64,000 nucleotides of DNA from Variovorax sp. J2L1-78. Lineage in GTDB: Bacteria > Pseudomonadota > Gammaproteobacteria > Burkholderiales > Burkholderiaceae_C. Each line of letters starts with the position of its first letter. Within the stretch, counting starts at the first letter, position 1. Shown here in pieces: positions 62,128 to 63,826 of this stretch. The stretch is from positions 114,501 to 178,500 of the forward strand of contig NZ_JASZYB010000002.1 in the NCBI RefSeq assembly GCF_030317205.1, read 5' to 3'. The translations under genes and the position numbers were made by a program. The notes under the pieces are model-generated. The model searched no databases and was not told the DNA's origin. It worked only from the letters and a program-made list of their open reading frames with translations.

Positions 62128-62622
62128 TCAGTCCCGCAGAAGGGCCATCGCGACGGCGTCGAAGTACTTGCCGTCCAGCCTGAAGGCGCGGCGCAGCAGG
62201 CCTTCGGCCGCGAAGCCGTGACGTTCGTACAGCGCCCTGGCTCTTGCGTTGTCGCAGCGCACGGACAGTTCGATGCGGGTAAGACCGGATGCCCAGGCCG
62301 CCTCCACGGCAGCGCGCAGGAGCGCCGAACCAATGCCTCGTCCTCTTGCCTCCGAGACGACGCCCATTCCCAGGTGACCGACATGCGCGCGCGCTTGACC
62401 ATGCGTCGGCAGGACGTCGCACCATCCGACGACCAGGCCTTCCACAGTGGCCACCCGAAGGCACCATCGGTTGGTGAGCACGGCGGTGTAGAAGGCCAAC
62501 GCTTGTTCTGGGGGTGGCGCCTCCGTGAAGGCAAGGAAGCGCCGCTCGCGTGCAACGGAGTCCAGCGCCTCTCGAAGGCCGGGAAAGTGGCGCTCTTCCA
62601 ACGGTTCGATCGATAGCGTCAT
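62128..62622 (-). CDS. GNAT-family N-acetyltransferase (RimI/phosphinothricin-type)
   Basis: The 164-residue protein has motif A VVSEARGRGIGSALLRAAVE (about 90-109) and ELSVRCDNARARALYERHGF (about 117-136), with the Asn and Tyr typical of GNAT enzymes acting on amino acids or protein termini. ATG 62622 begins MTLSIEPLEERHF; longer readings are unlikely. It converges with the MFS gene over 120 bp and is divergent from the ParD-like gene over 158 bp. The substrate is unknown. Confidence 0.92.
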   Translation of the reverse strand: MTLSIEPLEERHFPGLREALDSVARERRFLAFTEAPPPEQALAFYTAVLTNRWCLRVATVEGLVVGWCDVLPTHGQARAHVGHLGMGVVSEARGRGIGSALLRAAVEAAWASGLTRIELSVRCDNARARALYERHGFAAEGLLRRAFRLDGKYFDAVAMALLRD

Positions 62623-62736
62623 GGTGCGTACGGCCGTTGCGTGGAACGGGGTCTCCGCCACAAATAACTCGGCATGGACTGAATGCCCGGATTTTGCAGC
62701 AGCGCCGACGGCAGGCGGCCGAAGGGCCATCGCCAC

Positions 62737-62767
62737 ATGAAATGCATATACTTCGTATACGTTTCAT
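62737..62767. promoter_or_regulatory. Autoregulatory operator candidate of the ParD-like/aminopeptidase operon
   Basis: ATGAAATGCATATAC (62737-62751) and GTATACGTTTCAT (62755-62767) form an imperfect inverted repeat about TTC, with outer ATGAAA/TTTCAT and inner ATAC/GTAT arms. It ends 13 bp before the ParD-like start codon and includes TATACT, a good -10 element. This AT-rich palindrome in GC-rich surroundings is what ribbon-helix-helix antitoxins usually bind to repress their own operons. Inferred, not shown. Confidence 0.6.
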
Positions 62768-62780
62768 ACAAAGGCCATCC

Positions 62781-63035
62781 ATGGGTATCGTCAAGATTTC
62801 AGACCTGATGCACGAGAACCTGCGTGTCGCAGGGAATGCTCTCAGCCGGTCGATCAATGCGCAGGCAGAGCACTGGATGCGGGTCGGCATGCTGACCGAG
62901 ATGCATCCGGAACTGGACCACCGCGAGATCTGCCAGCTGTTGATACGGGCCGAACTCGCGGGGGGGCTGGACATCACCATGGCTGCCACGCCCCAACCGG
63001 GCAAGCCTCGCGCGGCTGCGACGAGAAAGCACTGA
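62781..63035 (+). CDS. ParD-like ribbon-helix-helix protein
   Basis: The 84-residue protein matches the ParD-like family (formerly DUF3423). The short N-terminal beta strand is GIVKISDLMHENLRVAGNALSRSINAQAEHWMRVGMLTE, the ribbon-helix-helix part (about 2-45), followed by a helix REICQLLIRAEL and a basic tail. Such proteins are usually antitoxins that bind their own promoter. No ParE-type toxin follows. Instead the stop shares one base with the start of a methionine aminopeptidase gene. AAAGG precedes the start. Whether the pair is a toxin-antitoxin system is open. Confidence 0.85.
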   Translation: MGIVKISDLMHENLRVAGNALSRSINAQAEHWMRVGMLTEMHPELDHREICQLLIRAELAGGLDITMAATPQPGKPRAAATRKH

Positions 63036-63826
63036 TGGCGCACGACGTGCCCATCCAATCCGCCGAACAACTGGAGATGGCGCGGCGGGCCGGCCGGCTT
63101 GCTGCGGAAGTCCTCGGCATGATCGCGCCCCATGTCGTGCCGGGTGTGAGCACGGAGACGCTCGACCGGATCTGCCACGAGCACATCGTGAATGTCCAGG
63201 GTGCCATTCCCGCCAACGTCGGGTACCAGGGCTATCCCAAGACCATCCTCACCTCCGTCAACCAGGTGGTGTGCCACGGCATCCCGTCCGCGAGCAAGAT
63301 CCTGAAGAGGGGCGACATCGTCAACATCGATGTCGCCGTCATCCAGGATGGCTGGTTCGGCGACACCAGCCGCATGTACTTCGTCGGCGAGCCCAGCCCC
63401 CTGGCTCGGCGTCTGGTGGAGACAAGCTACGAAGCCCTGCTGGCCGGCATTCGGCAGGTGAAGCCCGGCGCGACGCTGGGCGATGTCGGCCATGCCATCC
63501 AGTCGGTCGCGCAACGCGAGCACTTCAGCGTGGTGCGCGAATACTGCGGGCACGGCATCGGGCAGATCTACCACGACGAGCCGCAGGTGCTGCACTACGG
63601 GCGGCGCGGAGACGGGCTCCGGCTCGAGGCGGGGATGGTCTTCACCATCGAGCCGATGCTCAACGCCGGCCAGCGCGAAACCCGTCAATTGCCCGATGGG
63701 TGGACGGTCGTGACCAAGGACCGGTCCCTGTCCGCGCAGTGGGAGCACATGGTCGCGGTCACGCCCGAGGGTTACGAGGTGTTGACGCCGTGGCCGGGCG
63801 GCACGGGCTCCTACGCGCCGGTCTGA
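63035..63826 (+). CDS. map: Type I methionine aminopeptidase
   Basis: The 263-residue enzyme removes the N-terminal Met from new proteins and contains all five metal ligands: Asp99 (NIDVAV), Asp110 (GDTSRMY), His173 (GHGIG), Glu206 (TIEPML) and Glu237 (QWEHMVAV), plus the substrate His in VCHGIPS. It should therefore be active. Housekeeping map genes usually lie beside rpsB. Here the gene is coupled (TGATG) to a ParD-like regulator gene and is probably a second, regulated copy. It ends 16 bp inside a convergent gene. Confidence 0.93.
   Translation: MAHDVPIQSAEQLEMARRAGRLAAEVLGMIAPHVVPGVSTETLDRICHEHIVNVQGAIPANVGYQGYPKTILTSVNQVVCHGIPSASKILKRGDIVNIDVAVIQDGWFGDTSRMYFVGEPSPLARRLVETSYEALLAGIRQVKPGATLGDVGHAIQSVAQREHFSVVREYCGHGIGQIYHDEPQVLHYGRRGDGLRLEAGMVFTIEPMLNAGQRETRQLPDGWTVVTKDRSLSAQWEHMVAVTPEGYEVLTPWPGGTGSYAPV

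What the first reader, a model, noticed from the sequence alone, without database searches (positions are those of the whole stretch)
62737..63826. ParD-like antitoxin-type gene coupled to a complete methionine aminopeptidase: a possible non-canonical toxin-antitoxin or processing module
Seen: an 84-residue ParD-like protein whose stop shares a base with the start of a type I methionine aminopeptidase having all five metal ligands, preceded by an AT-rich palindrome with a -10 element. Known: ParD-family proteins normally repress their own operon and neutralise a ParE toxin, and housekeeping map genes are usually elsewhere. Inference: a regulated second aminopeptidase could alter N-terminal processing under stress, or be held in check by the ParD-like partner.
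Basis: partly seen in the sequence, partly recalled or inferred. Interest (0 to 1): 0.7.

Follow-up and report, generated by a model that had tools for sequence, protein, structure and literature searches.

The report
Self-regulated spare methionine-clipping enzyme cassette
A small DNA-binding protein from a family of antitoxins is paired, in many bacteria and on many plasmids, not with a toxin but with a spare and altered copy of the enzyme that trims the first amino acid off new proteins; the pair looks like a self-controlled backup enzyme, not a poison and antidote.

Summary
An 84-aa PF11903 protein (62781-63035) overlaps a complete type I methionine aminopeptidase (MAP, 63035-63826) by one base. 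The pair is widespread: all 80 relatives kept (of 318 found) have a MAP match just downstream, one broken, and it occurs on alpha-, beta- and gammaproteobacterial plasmids. In 26 of 26 sampled pair genomes this MAP is a second copy.

Reading: an autorepressed accessory-MAP cassette, not a toxin-antitoxin system. The repressor family has a ribbon-helix-helix profile. Half-sites ATAYGAA cover the -10 region just before its ATG; a matrix finds them in 33 of 36 further loci and 0 of 59 PF11903 genes without MAP. The MAP keeps all metal ligands but has a remodelled Met pocket: its cysteine, present in 47 of 47 other MAPs compared, remains in 8 of 114 linked ones, 6 of 26 in the even sample. Against a toxin: MAPs of these lineages persist without the repressor; in Sulfitobacter the repressor is divergent from a MAP of another lineage.

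Boldest untested reading: the invariant Met-Gly start lets the repressor sense MAP activity. No report of the pair was found in the open-access library.

The parts
62736..62770 (+). Operator array: CATGAAATGCATATACTTCGTATACGTTTCATACA, alternating ATAYGAA / TTCRTAT half-sites
   Evidence: A matrix from 80 upstream regions (mostly Burkholderiales, plus Zoogloea and Methylomonas) finds the element (p<0.01 against shuffles) in 42 of 45 other loci, 33 of 36 after dropping 9 loci fetched twice, and in 0 of 59 unlinked PF11903 genes. In the whole genome: one exact match of the 18-base core and one match with 3 mismatches; the backward control pattern has 2 matches.
62747..62752 (+). -10-like hexamer TATACT inside the operator
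   Evidence: Sequence; the family consensus at these columns is TATAAT. The sigma-70 scan found no full promoter, so promoter use is inferred.
62770..62774 (+). Shine-Dalgarno-like AAAGG of the ParD-like gene
   Evidence: Sequence; purine columns AGAG follow the operator in the family alignment. Inferred.
62781..63035 (+). ParD-like (PF11903) protein, 84 aa, inferred ribbon-helix-helix autorepressor; starts Met-Gly (Gly2 codon 62784-62786)
   Evidence: Pfam 106.2 bits; hhalign of the 33-member family alignment to 24 RHH_1 proteins 86% probability, E 5e-6, against 0.2% for a MazE control; Gly2 in 130 of 130 linked loci; model with helices 8-21, 28-41, 47-59.
63035..63826 (+). Second type I methionine aminopeptidase, 263 aa, overlapping the stop of the ParD-like gene (TGATG)
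   Evidence: TIGR00500 309.8 bits. The other type I map of this genome, 56% identical, lies at G000:C1:376043-376810.
63215..63217 (+). MAP Asn61 = E. coli Cys59 position of the Met side-chain pocket
   Evidence: N 89 / S 25 of 114 linked MAPs, never Cys; 11 of 47 other MAPs have Cys; pocket residues from PMC10724148 Table 2 (passage).
63248..63250 (+). MAP Leu72 = E. coli Cys70 position of the Met side-chain pocket
   Evidence: Cys in 47 of 47 other MAPs compared; L 81 / N 25 / C 8 of 114 linked MAPs; in the 26 linked MAPs of the even phylum sample N 17 / C 6 / L 3.

Best explanation
A mobile, two-gene accessory methionine-aminopeptidase cassette with its own switch. The ParD-like protein is a ribbon-helix-helix autorepressor. 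It binds the array of ATAYGAA half-sites over the -10 region and keeps the operon low (inferred from operator conservation, position and near-uniqueness). MAP is made from the same message by translational coupling through the TGATG overlap (inferred). When repression is lifted, a second, catalytically complete MAP with a remodelled Met pocket, mostly without its cysteine, is produced. It tops up or replaces the housekeeping MAP when that enzyme is insufficient or disabled, most plausibly by oxidants, electrophiles or inhibitors that hit its pocket cysteine (trigger inferred, weakest step). The ParD-like protein controls expression; it does not neutralise a toxin.
For: A MAP match lies just downstream in 80 of 80 kept genome-contig loci (in L087 it is broken) and at 25 of 85 inspected PF11903 places of the phylum sample, plus this genome. 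Pair genomes carry exactly two type I MAPs over the cut-off in 26 of 26. Operator. RHH profile. Metal ligands 114 of 114 and altered pocket; cysteines per linked MAP 2-5, others 4-8. In three Sulfitobacter plasmid records the same ParD-like type is divergent from map with an ATTATACGAAT...ATTCRTATAAT repeat between them, and that MAP groups with MAPs of another class, not with the linked MAPs (98/95). So repressor and operator go with a MAP even when the MAP is of another lineage. Purifying selection. No third gene is conserved near the pair (next cluster 6 of 96 loci).
Against: No binding, expression or enzyme data exist. Loss of the pocket cysteine is not universal (8 of 114 keep it; 6 of 26 in the even sample; also L258), and replacing it is reported to lower MetAP1 activity (PMC12028322, passages), so linked MAPs could be weak or differently specific and not stress-proof. 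The trigger is unknown. The operator matrix fails in 3 of 36 loci (L116, L241, L248). Fold searches and a profile search of the PDB returned no RHH structure, and linked members alone give only 23.6% probability to RHH_1.
Confidence: 0.55

Rival explanations
1. A real type II toxin-antitoxin pair: an over-active or altered-specificity MAP is toxic and the ParD-like protein holds it in check by binding it.
For: Same architecture as the PF11903 pairs with ParE-like and zeta toxins; plasmid-borne and patchy; remodelled substrate pocket; repressor and MAP distances correlate, as binding partners would, though shared descent gives the same.
Against: Complete MAPs of the same lineages occur in genomes with no PF11903 match: L230 deep inside linked clade II, L213 and L211 within the clade I branch. 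In Sulfitobacter the same ParD-like type sits beside a MAP of another lineage. The linked proteins lack the EYxF-like end of the ParE-partnered members. Excess MAP is tolerated by E. coli (recalled).
Confidence: 0.12
2. The MAP has gained a different substrate range (for example oxidised or non-standard N-terminal Met), and the pair is a special-purpose processing system, not a backup.
For: Clade II has a wholly changed and more polar pocket (S59 Q62 N70 M177) in 25 of 114 linked MAPs and 17 of 26 in the even sample have N70; most of clade I has N59 L70 Y177; the P1' residues M206, Q233 and, in 111 of 114, Y168 are kept.
Against: Both clades keep all catalytic residues and Trp221; no substrate data; two different pockets share one operator type and repressor family.
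Confidence: 0.15
3. Resistance gene: a MAP insensitive to natural or synthetic MetAP inhibitors, induced in their presence.
For: Pocket altered at the residue that covalent inhibitors of a bacterial MetAP1 can attack (PMC12028322 passages); many plasmid records are from Pantoea, Rahnella and Erwinia, often plant isolates.
Against: No conserved neighbour of any kind within the fetched flanks, so nothing ties it to a producer cluster.
Confidence: 0.1
4. A neutral hitch-hiker: a plain extra map copy kept by its self-repressing partner, with no specific role.
For: Patchy even within the genus (about 50 of 101 genomes by my count); the housekeeping MAP is retained in 26 of 26.
Against: Low dN/dS in both genes; conserved operator and clade-wide pocket changes.
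Confidence: 0.08

Closest known systems
PF11903 with ParE-like toxin (PF15781) type II toxin-antitoxin pairs
   Same: Same Pfam family for the first gene, same order, usually a short gap or overlap (annotated in Duffyella)
   Different: Second gene is MAP; the EYxF-like end is missing; N-terminus one residue shorter with invariant Gly2; a different conserved operator
PF11903 with zeta/PezT-like toxin (Mycobacterium MHSD3, PMC5728571; Rv0366c-Rv0367c, PMC6362051; passages read)
   Same: First gene of the same Pfam family, RHH-type N-terminus
   Different: Kinase-type toxin partner and an added C-terminal part in the antitoxin, which those authors liken to epsilon/PezA
Housekeeping type I MetAP (TIGR00500; E. 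coli Map)
   Same: All five metal ligands, His79, His178, Trp221
   Different: Pocket positions 59, 62, 70 and 177 changed in most; fewer cysteines; a second copy in 26 of 26 sampled genomes; own putative repressor
Other bacterial second MetAPs (M. tuberculosis 1a and 1c, PMC12028322 passages; B. subtilis YflG, recalled)
   Same: More than one type I MAP in one genome
   Different: M. tuberculosis 1c keeps the pocket cysteine (Cys105); no RHH gene coupled to those enzymes is known to me (recalled, not searched)

Membership tests
PF11903 ParD_like | Score above the Pfam cut-off (23 bits) | tested here: met
   106.2 bits
Ribbon-helix-helix DNA-binding proteins (Pfam clan CL0057) | Profile similarity to RHH from the first residue on | tested here: met
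   hhalign 86%, E 5e-6 for the whole family (33 members) to RHH_1; 92.6% for unlinked, 23.6% for linked members alone; MazE control 0.2-0.8%. Clan in PMC7354421 Table 2 (passage).
Ribbon-helix-helix DNA-binding proteins (Pfam clan CL0057) | Structural match of the model to a solved RHH protein | tested here: inconclusive
   Monomer model, nothing significant; profile against PDB sequences no RHH
Type II toxin-antitoxin system | Partner belongs to a known toxin family | tested here: not met
   Partner is TIGR00500 MAP; no PADLOC match for either protein at E 1
Type II toxin-antitoxin system | Second protein is toxic and the first neutralises it by binding | not testable with these tools
   No growth or binding assay available
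Type II toxin-antitoxin system | Active toxin gene is not kept without its antitoxin | tested here: inconclusive
   MAPs L230, L213, L211 keep all ligands in genomes without a PF11903 match, which speaks against; their activity and any other inhibitor are unknown
Type II toxin-antitoxin system | Antitoxin represses its own operon at an upstream operator | tested here: inconclusive
   A conserved operator-like element is present; repression itself not testable
Type I methionine aminopeptidase | TIGR00500 score and five metal ligands | tested here: met
   309.8 bits; ligands 114 of 114 linked MAPs
Type I methionine aminopeptidase | Substrate-pocket cysteine (E. coli Cys70), called conserved in MetAP1 by PMC12028322 (passage) | tested here: not met
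   Leu72 in the window; Cys in 8 of 114 linked and 47 of 47 others. The score and ligands still make it a MAP, so it is filed as a variant MAP.

The most novel reading that the evidence does not exclude
The repressor is a sensor of methionine-aminopeptidase activity. Its start, Met-Gly-Ile-Val-Lys, is at once a likely MAP substrate and the DNA-contacting strand. With enough MAP activity the Met is removed and the repressor binds the ATAYGAA array; when the housekeeping MAP is oxidised, inhibited or outrun, Met stays on, binding weakens, and the pocket-altered spare MAP is made until processing recovers. This would be a feedback loop in which N-terminal processing is the signal.
Probability: 0.18. 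Interest if true: 0.88.

Novelty: new variant of a known kind. Interest (0 to 1): 0.6.

Why it matters
If right, a family labelled as an antitoxin is, in one large branch, the switch of a mobile spare for an essential protein-processing enzyme. The spare mostly lacks the pocket cysteine that is described as conserved in MetAP1 and as a drug target, so plasmid-borne copies (Pantoea, Klebsiella, Salmonella, Acinetobacter records) bear on MetAP inhibitor work. It also warns against calling a toxin-antitoxin system from an antitoxin domain alone, and offers a simple test of whether N-terminal Met removal can act as a regulatory signal.

Tried and rejected
Toxin-antitoxin reading: kept as a rival at 0.12 for the reasons given there.

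Loss of ribosome binding by the spare MAP: tested through the lysines K211, K218, K224, K226 (ribosome role recalled). The loop charge is not clearly different (mean 0.42 linked, 0.62 others), so no claim.

One or several origins of the linked MAPs: the quick tree showed two clusters. A 95-row test favoured one clade (p-AU 0.74, held tree 12.29 log units better). The careful 76-row tree gives clade II 100/100 and clade I with L213 and L211 99/85; one clade of all has p-AU 0.058 (40 rows) or 0.123 (42 rows). Unsettled, except that the Sulfitobacter MAP groups elsewhere (98/95).

Fold search of the ParD-like model (pLDDT 82, monomer): nothing significant; profile against PDB best E 0.44. Phages: no match. 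IMG/VR: one contig, L200, whose upstream region reads the same as Methylomonas koyamae L103, not followed. E. coli: no place covers 80% of the Klebsiella pair or of the window pair in 5,426 genomes; the 5,374 and 5,372 genomes with a match have one place each, annotated map in the rows listed. PMC3948609 looked promising, but in the passages seen its map and RHH genes are apart. Searches for pocket cysteine and for a second map in bacteria gave no paper on this pair.

Rows dropped before counts: L242 (Sulfitobacter), L147 (a MAP elsewhere in the fragment) and orphans L230 (Asn at position 70), L213 and L211 (both Cys) from the linked/other pocket comparison; the six very divergent MAPs L233-L238 and the distant M24 peptidase L002. 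The 47 'other' MAPs include some second copies, not housekeeping ones only. Three of 88 PF11903 places were not (own locus; second G172 fragment; G201 contig end). One search listed 36 MAP places, 30 of which were loci. Many linked loci are close kin, and some were fetched twice: the 129 hold 117 distinct upstream regions and 114 distinct proteins. The regular expression demanded Gly2, so the unbiased one search is the one to cite. The selections each hold one misplaced row (L030 among linked, L241 among unlinked). The operator consensus was read off the same loci; one search is the out-of-sample test, though its 36 loci include four of the same family and its training set kept only upstream regions that fit the consensus.

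Full report
What is there. The ParD-like ORF is 62781-63035 and the MAP ORF 63035-63826, sharing the A of TGATG. The first scores 106.2 bits to PF11903, the second 309.8 bits to TIGR00500; neither matches PADLOC. The genome (5.69 Mb; the nearest named relatives are Variovorax) has one other type I MAP, 56% identical, on contig 1, and a distant M24 peptidase. Five comparisons with Variovorax loci give dN/dS 0.07-0.10 for ParD-like and 0.11-0.18 for MAP.

How general it is. Of 318 genome-contig stretches encoding a relative, the best 80 were kept; all 80 have a MAP match just downstream on the same strand, one of them broken (L087). In an even sample of 299 genomes of the phylum, 83 have PF11903, at 88 places. 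I read 85 of these: 25 are followed by MAP and 60 are not. With the window's own this makes 26 pair genomes, and all 26 carry exactly two MAPs over the TIGR00500 cut-off. By my count of the listing, 44 of 299 genomes have two such MAPs, 26 of them the pair genomes; at the 30 of 36 MAP places of the other 18 genomes that I could read, no ParD-like gene lies in the fetched flanks. In the window's genus 70 of 101 genomes have PF11903, and by my count about 50 have the MAP-type form (MAP adjacency not checked in each).

Plasmids. 163 records match the ParD-like protein. I opened 20 places. In 12 with annotation, ParD-like is followed by map on the same strand (Polaromonas, Pantoea, two Acinetobacter, Klebsiella, Salmonella, Sphingomonas, Rahnella, Catenovulum, Psychrobacter, Indioceanicola, Erwinia); three Sulfitobacter records have the divergent form; Duffyella has a RelE/ParE toxin instead; four without annotation here show the pair by script. 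No phage record matches.

Two branches of one family. PF11903 members without MAP have other partners: of 60, 39 have a downstream ORF of 85-100 aa, 7 of 185-215 aa and 14 neither. Of nine tested, seven are PF15781 ParE-like toxins and two are zeta-type. The MAP-linked branch differs: residue 2 is Gly in 130 of 130 loci, against 1 of 60 in the others, where A, P and S prevail. The N-terminus is one residue shorter. The end is not conserved, whereas the unlinked branch has a partly conserved EYxF-like end (Tyr in about 70%, Phe in about 60% of 19 selected rows). As a profile the family matches RHH_1 proteins (86%, E 5e-6; unlinked alone 92.6%, linked alone 23.6%) and not the MazE control (0.2-0.8%), aligned from the first residue on. 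So the invariant start lies in what should be the DNA-contacting strand; that placement is inferred.

The operator. Upstream of the ATG the linked loci share an array of ATAYGAA / TTCRTAT half-sites over a TATAAT-like hexamer; the 40-base consensus, purine-rich ribosome-site columns included, ends 7 or 8 bases before the start codon in 89 of 111 fitting loci. A matrix from 80 loci, mostly Burkholderiales, finds it at p<0.01 in 42 of 45 other loci (33 of 36 after removing duplicates; misses L116, L241, L248), and in 0 of 59 unlinked PF11903 genes. In the whole genome the 18-base core has one exact match, at 62752-62769, and one more with 3 mismatches; the control pattern read backwards has 2 matches whose mismatch numbers are not shown. 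This points to a dedicated autorepressor with a regulon of one promoter (inferred).

The enzyme. Metal ligands, His79, His178, Trp221 and Met206 (E. coli numbering) are kept in 114 of 114 linked MAPs. The Met side-chain pocket, listed for E. coli as Cys59, Tyr62, Tyr65, Cys70, Phe177 and Trp221 in PMC10724148 Table 2 (passage), is changed: position 70 is Cys in 47 of 47 other MAPs compared but L 81, N 25, C 8 of 114 linked; position 59 is never Cys in linked; one clade also has Q62 and M177. The 114 hold many close kin; among the 26 linked MAPs of the even sample position 70 is N 17, C 6, L 3. Linked MAPs have 2-5 cysteines, the others 4-8. PMC12028322 (passages) calls this cysteine conserved in all MetAP1 and reports reduced activity when it is replaced. 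So these are complete but altered enzymes. Whether they are oxidation-proof, inhibitor-proof or differently specific is open.

Why not a toxin-antitoxin pair. L230 lies deep in the linked clade II (87% identical to the Klebsiella plasmid MAP), and L213 and L211 fall in the clade I branch; their genomes have no PF11903 match, and all three keep every ligand. What stays constant is repressor plus operator next to a MAP. Repressor and MAP distances correlate (Spearman 0.88, 83 non-redundant pairs), which shared descent alone would also give.

Most likely mechanism. Shown: gene order, overlap, conserved operator-like element, second-copy status, altered pocket, mobility, selection. Inferred: RHH binding and self-repression, translational coupling, derepression when MAP activity is short, and rescue by a spare enzyme without the vulnerable cysteine. 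Boldest: the repressor's own Met-Gly start is the sensor (probability 0.18), resting on Gly2 invariance and its place in the DNA-contacting strand; against it, Gly2 may simply be needed for DNA contact.

Literature. Searches of the held open-access library for ParD-like with methionine aminopeptidase (0 papers), PF11903 (3 papers, passages read, none on MAP), MAP with antitoxin and RHH (1 paper, not this), and type I methionyl aminopeptidase with toxin-antitoxin and operon (0) gave no report of this pair as a system. Searches were swamped by one of their terms; none of the papers they listed first holds both. Subscription papers were not searched. The plasmid records name the two genes separately, 'ParD-like family protein' and 'map'.

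Noticed in passing
window 62128-62736 (-): A GNAT-family acetyltransferase gene is divergent from the pair; its listed start abuts the operator, so the operator might also touch its promoter. It is not among the neighbours conserved in other loci.
   Followed up: partly
L242, L253, L254: Sulfitobacter plasmids: ParD-like and map divergent around an operator-like repeat, next to an rRNA-methylation-annotated methyltransferase and rpsU (30S S21).
   Followed up: partly
L087 and L069 (same contig): A Burkholderiales metagenome contig holds two pairs; in one the MAP match is broken while the ParD-like gene reads intact.
   Followed up: no
L239, L240, L241: Pairs on a Klebsiella pneumoniae IncFIB/IncHI1B plasmid near iroE, a conjugative Salmonella IncFIA plasmid, and an Acinetobacter baumannii plasmid beside blaOXA-58.
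   Followed up: no
L213 upstream of MAP: An orphan second MAP without ParD-like gene has a TTTCGTATCGAAA palindrome upstream, perhaps an operator remnant.
   Followed up: no
   Followed up: no
L200: One IMG/VR contig carries the pair; its upstream region reads the same as that of Methylomonas koyamae L103.
   Followed up: no
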